A stretch of DNA of 64,000 bases, from positions 13,191,001 through 13,255,000 of the forward strand of contig NC_091094.1 of NCBI RefSeq assembly GCF_024713975.1. Reading direction: 5' to 3'. This document shows, in pieces, positions 25,901 to 34,420 of this stretch (its first letter is position 1; each line of letters starts with the position of its first letter). The notes under the pieces are model-generated. The model saw only the letters and a program-made list of their open reading frames with translations. It searched no databases and was not told where the DNA came from. This DNA comes from Paralichthys olivaceus (lineage: Eukaryota > Chordata > Actinopteri > Pleuronectiformes > Paralichthyidae). The position numbers and the translations under genes are program-made.

Positions 25901-28900
25901 AAAGGGCGACTCATCAACACTTGTGGTGTGGCACCGTCTGCTCTGGATTTTGTTCAGTAATCTGTCTTTGTCCTGAAAAGTATCTCCCAAAATCACACTA
26001 ACCTAGATGCATAATCTGTGTTACATAAGCAACATACCAATGGTTTTGTATTTAGAAAATGAAAATAGCTAATGTTAGATATTCAGAAGCTATTTTCATT
26101 GCCGTTTGTCTGACTTTTAGCAGGATTATGCAAAAAATACAGAATCAATTTTCTCGAAACTTGGGTGGATAGGGTTTGGGCTGAGGAAGAACCCATGAAC
26201 TCTTGCTATTGATTGAATCAAGGAGGCTAACCCAGGATTCTTTTTACTTTCTTTAACTTTATATTATAATAATGCAGAGATCTTGATTGAAATCTTGGAT
26301 CTTGGATTTATATCTGTGTGCAGTCTGGTGCAGCTTGAATATAAGGGGATGTGCTCTGTTGAGTGTCATCTAGTTTTTTCCAGTTGCTACATTACTTCAT
26401 ATCTTTTGTTAAACTGGGCTGTCAACGTGTCACAGTTACGCCTAAAGTCAAACGACACAGAGAAACAAAGACATTCACAAGTGCTGTTTGAACCAACATG
26501 CAGTTAAAACATGATGTTACCAGACCTATCGTTCCACAAACCCTGATAAGGTTTCTCATGAATGGAAAACACAACATGAGCATCCTGCTTCTGGTGATAC
26601 TGGAAGCTGGAGAGGGAATATTTTATGAGAACTTTGGATGAACATGGAGCGACACAGCTGATTCACTCTTCAATGTTAAGATTTCTTTACCCATTTTTTA
26701 TTCCAAGGTTAAATTACAGAGAGGTTGATCATTTAGTTTTGTTTTCTATAGAAAGGAAGCAATGGTTCACAATGTCTATTATTAATCCTATTGGCAGGAA
26801 CAGCCTGACATGCAGATTTAGTGGCTGGTCGCCTGTTTTTTCTTTTTAGGTCAATGCCTACAGACAAAAACATGTTTTGCTTGTACACACCAAGCATTAA
26901 GCTGCTTTTATACCATGTTTTCCTTCTCGACATGAAAAAAAGGGCAAACGCCTTCAATGCGTTAATCTTTCTCTGGATATGTTCAGACCATTTTCATACT
27001 AATTGTGGCTCGAAACACCAAGTCCATTTAAGAAAATTAATATTCTATTGCTATGCTATGCTATTAATATGCTAATATGCAGTATACTTTTATAAAAAAC
27101 AAATAAATAAATAAAATGTCAATATAATTACAGCCACAAATGTTATTGTCTGGGTCAATGGTGTAAATGTTGGGGACTGTTCCGCTGTAGATTTAGTGTG
27201 CAAGTTATAATTTGCTGCAGCAGGACAGTGTACGTGGGACTGACTAATAATTAAAGCATCTATCTACCAGCAGGTCAAGGAAAATTCTTTATGGTCATAT
27301 TGTTTTGGTTTTTTCATGGTATTTGTTGACAATAAGAGTAATATATAATATCACCTAAACTATAAAATCACAAGGATCTCTTATCCTTAAAACCAGGGCC
27401 TAAATCACCATATACATTGGGGGGGACATGTCCCCCCCAATATTCAGATATGCTCAAAATGTCCCCCCCAATATCTATCTGATTAAAAAAAAAAAAAAAA
27501 GTCAGGCAACCACATACACATCCCACTGTCCGAAATAATCAATAGCAAAAAAGTCATTTAATCATTATTATAGCTAAACATAAGACATTTTTGATATAGG
27601 CTAGTTACTACCGGTTGTAGGATTGCAGTTATGCGTGGTTTGTCCAGATGGTGTTGCCCGCCGTACAATACCATGTTGACACACCACCCCATCCAGCAGA
27701 ATTCATTGCTCGACTGCTGTGGGTATGTCAAACCCTCTCTCTGTTTTTCATTACTTTCAAACATATTTAAAAGTGGAAAATCAGAATGTAGCCTAATATG
27801 AATGTTACTAATCGACTTTATTAAAGTTGTTGATTATATTTTTTGTTAAGTGTTAAGAAAATGTAATTTCATGAATGGTCTTGCAAGGAATAGCCTACTA
27901 GCTAGCTGGCTAACATTAGCTAACATTCTGACAGGAATTCTGAGCTAACTCACTAGTATAATGTTAGGCTACATTCCATTTACAGGTATTAGCTAGTGAA
28001 CAGCCAGAGCAACTAACATGAGGAGAGGAGAAGTTTCCCAGCTCCTATATCGAACCATATTATATTTGTAAGAAAACCCACATGAAGTTTGAGTGTCAAT
28101 CATTTATGTAGCACGTCAATTTCACAGTGAGTCATCATGAGCAAGAGGAAGAGTGGCAGCGATATAAGACTGTTTTTTGGGCAGCTTCAGAAAAGAAATA
28201 AAGTAAGTTCAGAGCAGTGAGAAAATGAGTAATTACCATTAATGTCAAGGAGTCAATATAGTATAATCAAATAGGCTTTCTAGTCTATAATTTACTATGT
28301 CTAGTCCAGTAATTTTAAGACAAAATGGGGGACAACCTTGAACAAATTGCAACAGAAGCAAATGCAACTGATTTTATATCCTCAACATGAGGGAAAAAAT
28401 CCCTGGAGAATCCCATTTCCCAAGTTTCAAAAAAGACCCAAATATAGTCCATTCGCTAGCCTCATTATTTTCCTCACGTGAATAGGGTAAAATGTTTAAC
28501 CCGCCTTAGATATCACCATGTAAATTACTGAGTTTATTACTTACATTAAGACAAATGAAAAATGTATACAGGCTTTTTGAAATTCGTTGTTAACATGAGC
28601 AAACAGTGCATAATCTAATTACTTATGGCTAATTTGCATACATAACACTGCTTCTGTTGCAATTTGTTCACCCAACATAACATAACAGTCCAATGTTAAA
28701 GTACAGACTCGTGTTGCCCCCCCATATGTAAAACATGTATAAATATTAGACTTTCTAGTCTATGGTTTACTAATATTTCATCCATGTTCACTGTGGTGTG
28801 TTCAGAGTAAGGACAGAGAGAATGAACAAGAGGATGGTGACAGGACAGGGAGAGTGTGTGCTGGTGACATAGAGGTGAGTGAGAAAGGAGCTAATATGAA

Positions 28901-31900
28901 TGGTTAAGACCAACTAATGACAACCTAACAGTCTAATATTGAAGTAAACATATATAAAAATTAGACTTTCTAGTGGTTTACTAATATTTCATCCATGTTC
29001 ACTGTGGTGTGTTCAGAGTAAGGACAGAGAGAATGAACAAGAGGATGGTGACAGGACAGGGAGAGTGTGTGCTGGTGACATGGAGGTGAGTGAGAAAGGA
29101 GCTAATATGAATGGTGAAGACCAACTAATGACAACCTAACAGTCTAATATTAAAGTAAACATATATAAATATTAGACTTTCTAGTGGTTTACTAATATTT
29201 CATCCATGTTCACTGTGGTGTGTTCAGAGTAAGGACAGAGAGAATGAACAAGATGATGGTGACAGGACAGGGAGAGTGTGTGCTGGTGACATGGAGGTGA
29301 GTGAGAAAGGAGCTAATATGAATGGTGAAGACCAACTAATGACAACCTAACAGTCTAATATTAAAGTAAACATATATAAATATTAGACTTTCTAGTGGTT
29401 TACTAATATTTCATCCATGTTCACTGTGGTGTGTTCAGAGTAAGGACAGAGAGAATGAACAAGAGGATGGTGACAGGACAGGGAGAGTGTGTGCTGGTGA
29501 CATGGAGGTGAGTGAGAAAGGAGCTAATATGAATGGTGAAGACCAACTAATGACAACCTAACAGTCTAATATTAAAGTAAACATATATAAATATTAGACT
29601 TTCTAGTGGTTTACTAATATTTCATCCATGTTCACTGTGGTGTGTTCAGAGTAAGGACAGAGAGAATGAACAAGAGGATGGTGACAGGACAGGGAGAGTG
29701 TGTGCTGGTGACATGGAGGTGAGTGAGAAAGGAGCTAATATGAATGGTGAAGACCAACTAATGACAACCTTAACAGTCTAATGTTAATGTTAAGTTAAGA
29801 TGAGATCATCCTCGTGCATTTCAGATCATACCCATGGAGAGGGAGTTTGACAGTGAGAGAGAAAGAGATAGAATGAGCAGCCAGACAGGCGATGATGAGG
29901 GCACTGGAGAGGAAGGGAGGGAGCTTGGACCTTTCCCAAATCATCCAAATGTGAAAGTCATACCGAGTCAAACCCTATCAAATAAAACACTCTACTTTCA
30001 GGAGAAGTGGTTTAAAGATCATACATGGCTCCATTACAGCCCCTCTGTAAAGGGTGTTCTCTGTTACTATTGTGCTAAATACTTTGCAGCACAAAAGTCC
30101 AAGCTTGCATCAAAAGCAGATTCAGCATTTGTCAAGACTGGCTTTAACAACTGGAAGAAGGCACTGGAGAAATTTAGTGCACATAAAGACAGCCAGTGTC
30201 ACAAATTAGCTGTGATGACTAGGCTTCAGGAGCCAAAGACTGTTAATGTGCAACTTTCACGTGAGCTTGAAAGACAGCAGCAACAAGCAAGGAGAAATCT
30301 TATGAAGATTGCTGGGGGTGTGCAGTACTTGGCACGGCAAGGTCTGGCTTTTCAAGGCGATGAGAAGGAGAGTGGGAATTTCAGCCAGCTTCTAAAGTAC
30401 AAGGCAAAAGGTGATGCAGAGCTGACCAACTGGCTAAAACGTCAGTTTGATTTCACCAGTCCCAAAATGCAGAATGAACTGTTGCAGCTGATGGCCAATA
30501 CAATCATCAAAAAAATTGTGTCAGACATAACATCAATGCCAGTGGTCCAGTTCGCACTTATCATTGATGGAACCCAGGATGTGTCAGGTGTTGAGCAGGA
30601 GTCAATATGTGTGCGCTTTGTAGATGCAGATCTACAACCAAAGGAAGAATTCCTGGGACTCTACGAGGTGTTATCAACAACAGGGGAAAATATAGCCAAG
30701 GTGGCTTGTGATGTGATGACGCGTCTAGACCTTCCTCTGTCTCAACTCCGAGGACAAACTTATGATGGTGCCGCAAACATGGCTGGACGATGGCAGGGAG
30801 TGCAAGCCATATTAAGGGCACAACAACCACTGGCTGTGTACTGTCACTGTGGTCCACATTGCGTGAACTTAATTACACAGGCTGCCTGTCTATCATCTCC
30901 ACTTGTGAGAGATTCAATGGCTCTGGTCCATGAATTGGGGGGCTTCTTTAACCAATCTGGCAAGTTCAAGTTGGTATTCCAGGAAATTGCCAAATCGGAG
31001 CATGGTTTCACCTCATTGAAGCCTCTCTGTCCAACCAGGTGGACTGTTCGCACCCCTGCCATCCACTCAGTTCTAAGGCAGTATGAGTCAGTGCTGACAG
31101 CCCTAGAAGAAATGGCATCAAGCAGCTCATCTGAGACGTCAGCTAAGGCTAATGGTCTTCATGGAGCATTTCTAAAAGGCAACACTGTGCTCGGCCTTGT
31201 AATGGCTGAGGACCTGATGGGGGATCTGGAATGCCTGAACACCTCCCTGCAGCATAGGAAACAGACAGTTTCAGGCATGTTGAAAGCTGTGGACCATGTA
31301 AAAACAAGCATGCAGGAAAAGCGAACAGAGGAACACTTTGATGTCTTGTTCTCAAAAGCAACTGCTATGGCAACAAAGTTGGACCTGCAACCAATTCAGA
31401 TGCCTCATATCCGCAAACCTACAAAGCGTTACACTGGTCAGGCTTCAGCCCATATCCATCCTGATGCCCAGTCCTTCTACAGAGCCCAATTCTACAACAC
31501 CTTGGACACAGTGAATACTCAATTCATAGAGAGGTTCGATCAAGCTGGATTCCACAAACTTCAGCAGCTTGAAAATGTGCTTCTACAGGGAACCATTGAT
31601 GAGGTTGTGGACCAGTATCCCGAATTGAATCCACAACTGCTTCAAGTACAGCTGGCCATGTTCGCAGCCAATTACACTTATGAAACAAGCTCAGATGTTG
31701 TCAGCATTATGCATGACATGGTGCCAGAAGTCCGAAGTCTGTTCAGCCAGGTGGAGGCTTTACTAAGGCTCCTGCTCATCGTCCCTGCATCCTCAGCAGA
31801 GGCTGAGAGGAGCTTTAGCGCACTACGAAGGCTCAAGACATGGCTCAGATCCTCCATGACGCAAAGCAGGCTGAATCATGTTGCTATCTGTCATGTGCAC

Positions 31901-33113
31901 CAGAGGAAGCTGGACGAACTGGACCTGGAAGATATATGCCAATCTTTCATCAGTGCCAATGATAGACGCAAAAAGGCGTTTGGGTCCTTTTCTAGGTAGA
32001 GGAGAGGGGAGAGGTGAGGAGAGGATAGCAGAGAGGAGAGGAGAGAGGAGAGGAGAGAAGAAAGGATAGGAGAGAGGAGAGGATAGGGGAGAGGATAGGA
32101 GAGAGGAGGAGAAGAGAGAGAGAGAGGAGGAGAGGGGAGAGGAGGAGGAGAGAAGGAGGAGAGGATGTGAGAGGGGAGAGGACAGAGGAGGAGAAGGAGG
32201 AGAGAGGAGAGGAGGGGGAGATGATGGAGGAGAGGAGAGAGGAGGAGGAGAGGGGTGAGTATAGAGGAGGAGAAGAGAGGGTAGAGGAGGAAAGGAGAAG
32301 AGGGTAGAGGATAGAGAAGGAGAGAGGACAGGAGGAGGAGGAAAGGAAGAGGAGAGGAGGACATAAGCACACATACATACTTTTTTCATTTTTATTTTAT
32401 TTGGTTCTGTGGGTTGTATTTGTTTTGTTTCATGTATTCCTGATGCTTTGGCAATATAGTTCTCACAACATTCATGACAATAAAACAAATTTGAGTCAAA
32501 TTGAATTTAATTGAATTGACTTGACTGGAGAGGAGAGGAGAGGAGATGACGGGAGAGCAAGAGAGAGGAAAAGAGAGAGGAGAATATAGGACCACAGGAG
32601 CTTGGCAAGGGAAGACAGGATGAGAAGAGAGCAGTGAAGGCCCTCCTGCCCAGTGCCCACACAAGTAATACAATGTAATAACATGTAACGCAATGCATTA
32701 TCATTATGGTAAAAAGAAAAAAAAGGTATATATATATAAGAGAGAAATTTGGTCCCCCCCAATGTTGACTCCATGGTTTAGGCCTTGCTTAAAACACATT
32801 AAATTAGATTCATATTCAGAAGTTACTCACTGGTGCAGCGTAAACCCTGCTTGTAGAGACCCCAGATGAATTCTCCACACAGGTCACACCAGGTGGGGTG
32901 AGCGTGACTGTAGACCTGGAAGTCATGACCCACTCCAGTCTCTCCTGTCTGACACCCGGGTGCCTCGATGCTGACGCTGTCTCCAACCAGACGGACGACG
33001 CTGAAGGAGCAGGGCTGAGCCGATGGTGGGGCACCACGGGCCGCAGGGGCAGCCAGCTCGATGGGATCATTCAGACTGAGGTCCTGCAGCTCGATCAGCT
33101 CACATTTAGACAT
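22906..33113 (-). CDS. rassf1: Ras association domain-containing protein 1, RASSF1A-type isoform
   Basis: Six coding exons on the minus strand: 32831-33113, 25734-25858, 24161-24265, 23355-23646, 23151-23266, 22906-23055. They sum to 1071 nt, 356 aa. The first two exons form a complete C1 zinc finger with spacing HX12CX2CX13CX2CX4HX2CX7C (H63 to C112), so this is the long RASSF1A form. A Ras-association domain follows (RRTSFYLPKDTAKHLHI ... FALFERTERQGQVY ... LVLKENDTGDVN, about 195-306), then a SARAH helix (WDAFSFPELCNFLRILKREE onward, about 307-352) that pairs with MST-type kinases. A non-coding 5' exon is predicted, with its donor at 34294 and the acceptor leading to 33314. Intron 1 (25859-32830) is swollen by a 5.4-kb hAT transposon in the opposite orientation. 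Known role: microtubule-associated scaffold activating Hippo signalling. Confidence 0.95.
27386..27393. repeat. Left 8-bp target-site duplication (CTTAAAAC)
   Basis: CTTAAAAC immediately precedes the element's terminal CAGGGCCTAAA. The identical octamer follows the other end at 32788-32795. Eight bases is the diagnostic duplication length for hAT elements. Confidence 0.92.
27394..27427 (+). repeat. Left terminal inverted repeat of the hAT element
   Basis: Begins CAGGGCCTAAATCACC and ends ACATTGGGGGGGAC. It pairs with the right end after reverse complementing, with several mismatches and a 2-bp length difference in the middle. Confidence 0.85.
27419..27438. repeat. Perfect 20-bp palindrome near left transposon end
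   Basis: GGGGGGGACATGTCCCCCCC is its own reverse complement. The half-site GTCCCCCCCAATAT recurs at 27461-27474, and a related GTCCCCCCCAATG occurs once at the right end (32752-32764). Repeated subterminal motifs in hAT elements are known transposase-binding sites, so these are candidates for that role. Confidence 0.7.
28137..31999 (+). CDS. hAT transposase with TTF-type zinc finger and repeated N-terminal exons
   Basis: Predicted exons: 28137-28202 (22 codons, starts MSKRKSGSDIRLFF), five 69-bp exons at 28806-28874, 29017-29085, 29228-29296, 29439-29507 and 29650-29718, then 29825-31999. Every intron is GT-AG and phase 0, giving about 861 aa. The last exon alone has an internal ATG at 29834 and 721 codons from it. 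Numbering from that Met: TTF/BED-like zinc finger with C77/C80 (CYYC) and H117..C122-H123; catalytic Asp245 (ALIIDGTQD) and Asp311 (TYDGAANMAG); CHCGPHC at 337-343; CPTRW at 399-403; and the C-terminal hAT dimerisation block with AEAERSFSALRRLKTWLR (about 655-672) carrying the catalytic-type Glu. The function is cut-and-paste transposition. The frame is intact, so activity is possible but unproven. The use of the upstream exons is inferred from splice-site quality and frame. Confidence 0.88.
28730..29780 (+). repeat. Tandem array of five 211-bp exon-plus-intron units
   Basis: Exon starts at 28806, 29017, 29228, 29439 and 29650 are spaced exactly 211 bp. Each unit holds the intron tail TTCACTGTGGTGTGTTCAG, a 69-bp exon starting AGTAAGGACAGAGAGAATGA, and the donor GTGAGTGAG. 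The exon is open in phase 0 and encodes 23 acidic residues (SKDRENEQEDGDRTG, then RVCAGDME). Copy 1 has Ile instead of Met near the end; copy 3 has Glu to Asp once. The units are otherwise almost identical, so the amplification is recent. Because each exon is a multiple of three in phase 0, any copy number or skipping pattern keeps the transposase in frame. Confidence 0.92.
31998..32361. repeat. GGAGA-type purine-rich microsatellite, about 360 bp
   Basis: One strand is almost entirely A and G (units such as GGAGA, GGAGAG and GAGGA) from the transposase stop codon onward. It lies in the transposase 3' UTR. Long open frames rich in Ser, Leu and Pro on the other strand are artefacts of this composition. 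Such mirror-like purine tracts can form triplex DNA and vary in length. Confidence 0.9.
32375..32522 (+). mobile_element. Possible LINE 3'-tail fragment inside the purine tract
   Basis: Between two purine-rich blocks lies a non-purine insert containing CCTGATGCTTTGGCAATATA, an AATAAA at 32479-32484 and a GAATT-repeat tail (AATTGAATTTAATTGAATTG). This order resembles, from memory, the 3' end of fish L2-clade LINEs. It may supply the transposase polyadenylation signal. No target duplication was identified, so the assignment is tentative. Confidence 0.35.
32527..32592. repeat. Second short purine-rich tract
   Basis: A GGAGAGGAGA run and GAGAGAGGAAAAGAGAGAGG continue the same composition as 31998-32361. 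It is probably one ancestral tract split by the insert at about 32375-32522. Confidence 0.7.
32752..32787 (-). repeat. Right terminal inverted repeat of the hAT element
   Basis: Reads GTCCCCCCCAATGTTGAC and ends GGTTTAGGCCTTG on the plus strand, the inverted counterpart of the left end at 27394-27427. Confidence 0.85.
32788..32795. repeat. Right 8-bp target-site duplication (CTTAAAAC)
   Basis: Exact match to 27386-27393, directly abutting the terminal CCTTG of the element. Confidence 0.92.
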
Positions 33114-34420
33114 CCTGTCCTCGATGGAGACACTGACATGTCAGTGACATACGGCTCTGAGAGGAGATGGCATCAATAGGAGCACCTGAACGTCTGTATT
33201 GAAGATGTGGATGTTGTGAGTGGTGAAGTGTACACAAGCACCACGTCAGTTTATTCCATCCACTTCCAGCTTTGTTTGTTGTTGAGGAACAATCAGCCGC
33301 GAAATCCTTAGGACCTGCAAGACAGATGACACTTCTAATACATGCATGGGTCAGTTTAACATACAAAAAACATGCAACACACATGAATTATGTTGCATTA
33401 TGTTATAGGGTTTAACATTGAGGAAAAAAAGATGAACCTCTGTTATCTGATGCCATGATCCATATGATTATGTTCAAATATGGGACAAGATGTTGAGTAT
33501 AATCCTGTGCAACCCAGAGACGACACATCTGTTTTTCTGCACCTGACAGTGAAACAAAACTTAACAATATCATTCCTTATCCACTAAAAATCATTTCAAA
33601 CTAATGAACCCACAGACTATTCAATGCTCTTTAAATGTTCACCAATTTATATAAGTAACCATGACAATGACAGTCAACTGAATTATCCTTTACTTATCAA
33701 TAATTAACTTTTTGCTGACACCTCCACAAGTTATTGTTTCCTGGATGTTTGTAATAAAGAACTACGCTTCAGAGAGAAGTTAAATCTTTTTTCCATCACT
33801 GGTGACAGAACAATCACAGACAGGGAATAACACAGGAACACTTCCTGCAAATCTAAACAGAGCTTGTGGTTTAACATGTTCGCAGACAGGTGCATGTGAA
33901 AGTTAGTGTGACTCGTTTCACTGTGGAGCTGCATATTGTGACTAGAATGTGAACAAGCCGGGATGTTTCTGCCAAGTGGGTCACCACCACCACCACCACC
34001 ACCACCACCACCACCTCCTCCAGCAGCAGCAGCAGCAGTACACGGTGCATTATTCCCACAGGCCAACAAGAACATATTGTGACCGGGATCATCCTGCAGC
34101 TCCTGACACTTAAATGTTAAACTATGCTCGTGTGGTAAAAGACAAACTTAATATTTCATCTCTCATTTGTTGCAAGAAGCATCTGATCCTGTCCCGGGAC
34201 AGCCCGGTTTAAAGCTGAGGTCTGGAACAGAGCAACAGTCTCATCTGACAGTGACACACATGACACAATGAAGCGTCAAATAAACGATCTTACCTCGTTC
34301 ACTTCTCCATCATGAGCTCAGAGCAAATGTGTGTTAGTCGCAGAATTAGAGCAGAACCTCTCTCCGGTCTCACGCACTTGTGTTTGCGCATGAGTGCGGA
34401 TTACCGTCTAATCCCGTGTG
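33114..34420 (-). promoter_or_regulatory. rassf1 5' UTR, leader intron and promoter region
   Basis: On the minus strand a clean acceptor (CTTGCAG) precedes base 33314, and a strong donor (GAACGAG then GTAAGATC) ends an exon at 34294. This implies a leader exon from about 34294 to a start near 34400, then an intron of about 980 bp, then a leader continuing into the ATG at 33113. CpG-rich sequence at about 34350-34440 fits a promoter. Confidence 0.55.
33982..34038. repeat. (CAC)n followed by (CAG)n triplet repeats
   Basis: Eleven or so CAC triplets run into CTCCTC and then six CAG triplets. They lie in the predicted rassf1 leader intron. Frames through them give homopolymers only. Confidence 0.9.

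What the first reader, a model, noticed from the sequence alone, without database searches (positions are those of the whole stretch)
28730..29780. Expandable in-frame exon array inside a hAT transposase gene
Five units of exactly 211 bp each contain one 69-bp exon with acceptor and donor. All introns are phase 0, so any number of units, or skipping of any of them, leaves the transposase frame open. The encoded 23-residue acidic repeat would precede the zinc finger. An array of duplicated exon-intron units in the coding part of a cut-and-paste transposon looks unusual to me. It could tune protein length, charge or dosage by copy number or splicing. The near-identity of copies points to recent or ongoing expansion.
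Basis: partly seen in the sequence, partly recalled or inferred. Interest (0 to 1): 0.8.

Follow-up and report, generated by a model that had tools for sequence, protein, structure and literature searches.

The report
Copy-variable exon array in transposon gene
A young jumping gene, apparently of a fish, carries a stack of near-identical exon-plus-intron blocks in its transposase gene, and the stack holds two to six blocks in different genomic copies without breaking the reading frame; splicing and any effect on activity remain to be shown.

Summary
The element is a 5,394-bp hAT transposon (27394-32787) with an 8-bp target duplication. Its own genome holds at least nine more full-length copies, each with its own perfect 8-bp duplication. 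Outside the array the ten copies differ at 13 substitution sites in 4,356 and by four small indels. Inside it they carry 5,5,6,4,4,3,3,3,2,2 units at exact 211-bp spacing (37 units, 7 distinct arrays). All 37 units keep ag|69-nt phase-0 exon|GTGAGT; the main exon is open in 9 of 10 copies. A 57%-identical sister family has a three-exon, phase-0 plan, and its middle exon is an in-frame tandem repeat of 264, 252 and 330 nt; the two middle exons share position and phase, not sequence. A distant hAT family in the same genome shows a second case: 220-bp exon-intron units (120-nt exon, phase 1-1), 1,2,2,2,3 in five loci. I read this as an intragenic VNTR whose repeat is a whole frame-symmetric exon plus intron, lengthening a probably disordered linker. 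Splicing was not observed and functional tuning is untested; hobo TPE repeats are the nearest precedent. New variant of a known kind.

The parts
27386..27393 (.). left 8-bp target-site duplication CTTAAAAC
27394..32787 (+). complete hAT element, 5,394 bp; starts CAGGGCCTAAA, ends TTTAGGCCTTG
28137..28202 (+). exon 1, MSKRKSGSDIRLFFGQLQKRNK, donor AAA|GTAAGT
   Evidence: sister family has MSKKRKMDIRDFFRSQS|GTAAGT at the corresponding place in 2 of 3 copies; the similarity alone is not significant (57% over 14 residues, E 4.6)
28203..28805 (+). intron A, 603 nt, phase 0
28339..28670 (.). 332-bp stretch with 22-bp perfect inverted ends inside intron A; the left part of the element has the same length in all ten copies except for two 1-base insertions in L016
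28731..29787 (+). array of five 211-bp units
28806..28874 (+). unit 1 exon (23 aa, ...GDIE variant)
29017..29085 (+). unit 2 exon
29228..29296 (+). unit 3 exon (E to D variant)
29439..29507 (+). unit 4 exon
29650..29718 (+). unit 5 exon
29719..29824 (+). intron B, 106 nt, phase 0; shares a 28-column alignment around TAACAGTCYAATGTTAA with intron A
29825..31999 (+). exon 3, 724 aa, hAT transposase body (DUF4371, Dimer_Tnp_hAT)
32788..32795 (.). right 8-bp target-site duplication CTTAAAAC

Best explanation
The array is a variable-number tandem repeat inside the transposase gene of a recently amplified hAT transposon. The repeat unit is one complete phase-0/phase-0 exon plus one intron. Each unit adds 23 residues to a linker between a short N-terminal segment (exon 1) and the DNA-binding and catalytic body (exon 3). 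SHOWN: the structure, its variation from 2 to 6 units among ten nearly identical copies, the frame kept by every unit in every copy, a repetitive exon at the same place and phase in a sister family, and a second hAT family with its own variable exon-intron units. INFERRED: that every unit is spliced in. INFERRED: that the first duplication arose by recombination between short similar stretches of introns A and B, and that later changes came from unequal exchange, slippage or template-assisted gap repair after excision. INFERRED: that the linker is disordered and its length largely tolerated, because selection sees neither intron length nor a frame shift. Any effect on activity is possible but untested.
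For: Ten full-length copies, each with a different perfect 8-bp TSD. Unit counts are 5,5,6,4,4,3,3,3,2,2 with exact 211-bp spacing. Outside the array there are 13 substitution sites in 4,356 gap-free columns, mean pairwise 0.063%, and four small indels. There are 37 units and 7 distinct arrays. The two 2-unit copies keep different internal introns, so at least one of them is a contraction; the 6-unit copy carries the D variant twice. The only flanking site shared by two copies joins L009 (5 units) and L013 (3 units). The 57% sister family (3 copies) has phase-0 introns and a middle exon of 264/252/330 nt (exon 1 found in 2 of 3). Second exon-unit family: 1,2,3,2,2 units of 220 bp, extra exons 120 nt, in frame. 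TRF arrays within the matched transposase body: 0 of 20 related loci; in the N-terminal coding linker: 7 of 20 (frames).
Against: No transcript or protein data. The repeated acceptor is weak (top 17%), so skipping or partial use is possible. The sister's middle exon shows no sequence similarity to the 69-nt exon, and the exon 1 similarity is not significant on its own, so 'the same slot' rests on position and phase; two of the three sister copies have a stop in the body. Both exon differences among the units (E/D, M/I) change the amino acid, so there is no sign of purifying selection on the repeated peptide, though two sites decide nothing. Unit counts come from one assembly; some may be mis-assembled. 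In the second family three of five copies have a broken or shortened body.
Confidence: 0.75

Rival explanations
1. Intronic minisatellite: the units are spliced out as one long intron (exon 1 to exon 3), the exon-like 69-mers are not used, and copy number is protein-silent.
For: The unit acceptor is weak. Joining exon 1 to exon 3 is also in frame (both phase 0). The sister's middle exon has no sequence similarity to the 69-nt exon.
Against: The sister family has a long, open, 3n exon in this place with good sites (acceptor top 4.0%, donor top 0.07%). The unit donor ranks 11th of 7,656 GT sites in the window, and 37 of 37 units keep frame and splice-site bases. All three sister middle exons are multiples of three.
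Confidence: 0.15
2. The units are promoter or enhancer monomers, as in mouse L1 5' regions (recalled), and transcription starts inside or after the array.
For: Position near the 5' end; a methionine lies early in exon 3.
Against: An exon 1 with start codon and donor lies upstream of the linker in the sister family (2 of 3 copies), and exon 1 is unchanged in 9 of 10 copies here.
Confidence: 0.06
3. Adaptive tuning (an addition to the best explanation, not exclusive of it): linker length or charge sets transposase activity, and selection among copies favours particular unit numbers.
For: hobo, also hAT: copies with 3 TPE repeats are reported to transpose more than copies with 5 (PMC4807377 citing an earlier study, passages). 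Predicted net charge runs from +6.4 with 1 unit to -13.6 with 6. Repeats recur in this place in several families.
Against: No activity data. Repeats in disordered linkers are expected where selection is weak. The second family's repeat is not acidic.
Confidence: 0.2
4. Assembly artefact or single odd locus.
For: Near-identical units are hard to assemble.
Against: Ten loci with their own TSDs and several unit compositions, and a second family.
Confidence: 0.02

Closest known systems
hobo (Drosophila hAT) TPE repeats
   Same: Variable in-frame tandem repeat in the transposase of a hAT element; number differs among populations (3, 5 and up to 7 reported) and is reported, from an earlier study cited there, to affect activity (PMC4807377, passages read)
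   Different: There the unit is three residues (TPE) repeated within an open reading frame; here it is a 211-bp exon plus intron that must be spliced
LPA kringle IV-2 VNTR (human)
   Same: In-frame array of exon-containing units, copy number variable (5.6 kb per unit, 1-40 units: abstract start of PMC11462820 in the listing; two exons per kringle: figure legend passage of PMC11201333)
   Different: Host gene, folded domain, two exons per unit; here a transposon gene, one small exon, probably disordered peptide
Tandem duplication of symmetric (phase-matched) exons in genes
   Same: Frame is kept because both introns have the same phase (general knowledge, recalled)
   Different: Usually fixed and diverged (recalled); here variable among copies of one mobile element
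Tetris foldback transposon (Drosophila virilis)
   Same: The listing matches it to internal tandem repeats within a DNA transposon (title and abstract start, PMC4079207)
   Different: Described there as building blocks of satellite DNA; I saw only the listing and nothing on coding exons

Membership tests
hAT superfamily transposon | 8-bp target-site duplication | tested here: met
   10 of 10 copies, perfect, all different
hAT superfamily transposon | short terminal inverted repeats | tested here: met
   the two ends align, with gaps, over GGCCTAAA...ACATTGGGGGGGAC; same end sequences in 10 of 10 copies
hAT superfamily transposon | C-terminal hAT dimerisation region | tested here: met
   PF05699, E 4.9e-07, 29.9 bits against a cut-off of 21.4
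hAT superfamily transposon | similarity to a solved hAT transposase | tested here: inconclusive
   Hermes, best E 0.0035, 41 residues only
Coding VNTR with exon-containing unit | tandem units, number variable among copies | tested here: met
   2 to 6 in 10 copies
Coding VNTR with exon-containing unit | unit contains a complete phase-symmetric exon | tested here: met
   37 of 37 units by sequence
Coding VNTR with exon-containing unit | units are spliced into mRNA | not testable with these tools
   no RNA data; indirect support from the sister gene
hobo-type activity-linked repeat | repeat number changes transposition activity | not testable with these tools
   needs a transposition assay

The most novel reading that the evidence does not exclude
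The stretch between the N-terminal segment and the DNA-binding part of DUF4371-type hAT transposases is an evolvable ruler. Families repeatedly and independently turn it into a fast-changing in-frame repeat, twice by whole exon-intron units in one genome. Linker length acts as a dial on transposase activity that each new copy can reset, with the introns supplying both the recombination substrate and the frame protection.
Probability: 0.2. Interest if true: 0.82.

Novelty: new variant of a known kind. Interest (0 to 1): 0.62.

Why it matters
It is a natural allelic series (2, 3, 4, 5 and 6 units) of an otherwise almost identical transposase, so the question whether linker length sets hAT activity can be tested directly. 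Array length has changed at least five times while the rest of the element gained 13 substitution sites and four small indels. That makes the locus a clean system for watching tandem exon duplication, normally seen only as an old result.

Tried and rejected
Relatives outside this genome: scans of viral contigs (2 pattern stretches, 0 confirmed) and genome contigs (44 pattern stretches, 0 confirmed) gave nothing; the genome search says that G000 has no relatives in its collection.

Idea that exon 1 or the start of exon 3 is itself an old copy of the unit: scores 32 and 38 against shuffle maxima of 36 and 40, with 2 of 500 shuffles reaching each (single-base shuffles). Left open, not claimed.

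Idea that all of intron A is an old degraded unit: its part before the nested insert scored 50, reached by 1 of 500 shuffles; its first 70 nt were reached by 26 of 500 and 28258-28338 by 44 of 500; the insert by 255 of 500. Only the part after the insert (28671-28730) is clearly similar to the unit intron (0 of 500).

Sequence homology of the middle exons: tblastn of the 23-residue exon against L028-L031 and L038 found nothing in the sister's middle exon (best E 3.1, elsewhere in L030).

Charge tuning as the common cause: the second family's repeated exon is Ser/Thr/Pro-rich.

An N-terminal I-x-x-F-F motif in exon 1 recurs in the sister family and perhaps in L041. The scan hit 6 of 13 related loci (L028, L029, L030, L038, L040, L041), several hits plainly spurious, against 2 of 84 background windows. 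Noted, not used.

One control, the donor of a host C1-domain exon, was misplaced by a base in my script and says nothing. A first unit count with a fuzzy-match script missed variant units; it was replaced by an ungapped count.

Wanted but unanswered: spliced retrocopies (exon-junction pattern), truncated copies by the 5' region, more copies of the 33-bp family.

Full report
WHAT IS THERE. The window holds a complete hAT transposon at 27394-32787, flanked by the 8-bp duplication CTTAAAAC. It lies about 40 bp from the end, as I read it by eye, of a host exon that encodes the start of a C1 domain on the other strand (PF00130; the name RASSF1-like is my recollection). The transposase body is one exon, 29825-31999, 724 aa, with DUF4371 and Dimer_Tnp_hAT. 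Upstream lie a 22-codon exon 1 at 28137-28202 and the array at 28731-29787: five units of 211 bp, each with a 69-nt open exon between ttcag and gtgagt, all phase 0. The introns contain stops in the exon frame.

SPLICE SIGNALS. With recalled vertebrate matrices the unit donor ranks 11th of 7,656 GT sites in the window (both strands) and the unit acceptor only in the top 17% of 8,246 AG sites; exon 1's donor is top 1.25% and exon 3's acceptor top 6.1%. A TACTAAT stretch lies 30-35 nt upstream of the unit acceptor (sequence; reading it as a branch point is recalled knowledge). So the exon is plausible but its acceptor is not strong.

SISTER COPIES. The genome that holds the window (588 Mb, 25 contigs; organism not named, I infer a teleost) was searched with the array (11 matches at 10 places, 10 of 10 candidates scored) and with the 724-aa body (67 matches, 62 of 285 candidates scored). 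Both give the same ten members of this family; the tool calls such counts lower bounds. The nine others were fetched, and all ten are full length with their own perfect 8-bp TSD. Unit numbers are: window 5, L009 5, L010 6, L011 4, L012 4, L013 3, L014 3, L015 3, L016 2, L017 2, always at 211-bp spacing. Exon 3 is open for 724 codons in 9 of 10; L012 has a 7-bp deletion there. Exon 1 is intact in 9 of 10; L016 has a 1-base insertion there. So 8 of 10 copies are intact in both.

TEMPO. Outside the array (up to the first unit acceptor, and from the exon 3 acceptor on) the ten copies show 13 substitution sites in 4,356 gap-free columns, mean pairwise difference 2.76 (0.063%), and four indels: two 1-base insertions in L016, and a 7-bp deletion and a 10-bp insertion in L012. 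A 382-bp stretch with the long GA-rich repeat behind the gene has one length in 10 of 10 copies; the 10-bp insertion of L012 lies in the second, shorter GA-rich tract, near 32526. In the array there are 7 distinct arrangements. Five length states need at least four changes; the two 2-unit copies keep different internal introns (L016 the common type, L017 the type otherwise found only behind unit 1), which adds one, so at least five changes and at least one contraction, probably two. The one flanking site shared by two copies joins L009 (5 units) and L013 (3 units); the other 12 sites are private to one copy. The 6-unit copy carries the E-to-D variant in units 2 and 4, the window in unit 3. Array length thus changes faster than anything else I could measure in the element, roughly 1,700 times the per-site substitution count (a crude ratio).

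ORIGIN OF THE UNIT. The unit intron begins like intron B and ends like intron A. Introns A and B share a 28-column alignment around TAACAGTCYAATGTTAA (score 34, shuffle maximum 31, 0 of 500), close to the point where the unit intron changes from one to the other. This suggests that the first duplication arose by recombination between these stretches. That step is inference.

SISTER FAMILY. At 57% identity there are three loci (L028, L029, L030); L029 and L030 each have one stop in the body. A DNA probe of the middle exon finds only these three at 92-100%; its other hits (68-82%, on the GA-rich part; 40 of 101 candidates scored) I take to be simple repeats. They have a matching plan: exon 1 MSKKRKMDIRDFFRSQS (found in L028 and L030; not in L029's fetched stretch), a middle exon and the body, with all introns phase 0. 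Their middle exon is a Gly/Glu-rich repeat of 264, 252 and 330 nt, each a multiple of three, with good sites in L028 (acceptor top 4.0%, donor top 0.07%; the exon 3 acceptor there is weak, top 14%). Against this, the 69-nt exon finds no sequence similarity in it, and the two exon 1 peptides match only at E 4.6. So the case that the 69-nt exon is real rests on equal position and phase, not on sequence. It also shows that this place varies in length by another route.

A SECOND EXON-UNIT ARRAY. In a family only about 25% identical (L039/L040; DUF4371 and Dimer_Tnp_hAT by Pfam on L039), L040 has a 220-bp unit twice with 2 mismatches. The duplication makes a full extra exon of 120 nt, phase 1-1, in frame, with good sites (donor top 0.64%, acceptor top 2.0%). 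A genome probe found five loci (5 of 5 candidates scored), with 1 (L039), 2 (L040), 3 (L048), 2 (L049) and 2 (L050) units. In L048, L049 and L050 the frame stays open for only 92, 101 and 209 residues past the array, against 718 in L039 and L040, so three of five are broken or shortened. The encoded peptide is Ser/Thr/Pro-rich, so charge is not the common factor.

MORE REPEATS IN THIS PLACE. I ran TRF on 20 of the 30 loci (L028-L047; the other ten are window-family copies). They include partial and decayed loci, L031 and L037 are one locus, L034 is part of a window-family copy, and in L044 only 240 bp of body matched. TRF finds 0 arrays inside the matched body (20 loci) and arrays in the coding linker in 7: L028, L029, L030, L032, L036 (decayed), L040, L046. 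For L034, L042, L043, L044 and L047 the match starts too late to define the linker, so the fair denominator is 15. Loci are not independent: the seven belong to about four families. Five further loci (L031, L033, L037, L041, L047) have upstream arrays that are not clearly coding linker, and L038 has a 22-bp array at the end of its open frame, after the match. L033, a relative of L032, has lost most of an 11-residue repeat (DEREEEQATKE) that L032 has about five times. Body sequences are under strong constraint, so this contrast fits simple tolerance as well as function.

MECHANISM AND FUNCTION. Shown: an exon-plus-intron VNTR, its number variable, its frame safe. Inferred: splicing of each unit, and a probably disordered linker that grows 23 residues per unit, from 792 aa (2 units) to 884 aa (6 units); predicted charge at pH 7 runs from +2.4 to -13.6 over that range. 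Tuning of activity is a live but untested idea. hobo is the precedent: 3 versus 5 TPE repeats are reported to differ in activity (PMC4807377, passages; the primary study was not read).

PRIOR WORK. By titles and abstract starts, the searches at (0 papers; 27, 20 listed; 6; 7; 3; 12; 4) show no paper describing an exon-unit array in a transposase. I opened only two papers, for passages. The library lacks most subscription journals, so absence there is weak evidence.

Noticed in passing
window 32823-33140 (-): Host exon with the start of a C1 domain (PF00130) ends about 40 bp from the right end of the transposon, so the element seems to sit just inside a host intron next to its 5' splice site; RASSF1-like by recollection.
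   Followed up: partly
window 28339-28670: 332-bp stretch with 22-bp perfect inverted ends inside intron A, which looks like a nested small transposon carried by all ten copies.
   Followed up: partly
L032, L033, L036 (N-terminal part): Another hAT family has an in-frame 33-bp acidic repeat before the body, about five units in L032, fewer in L036 and L033.
   Followed up: partly
L048, L049, L050: Copies of the second exon-unit family whose frame closes 92-209 residues past the array; possibly internally deleted elements that keep the exon array.
   Followed up: no
window 28137-28202; L028:214; L041 (oriented 530): Exon 1 encodes a short basic start followed by I-x-x-F-F, resembling a PCNA-binding motif without its glutamine (motif recalled); similar starts in the sister family and L041.
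   Followed up: partly
window 27410-27478 and 32750-32772: Runs of seven G or C just inside both ends of the element, forming a near-palindrome at the left end.
   Followed up: no
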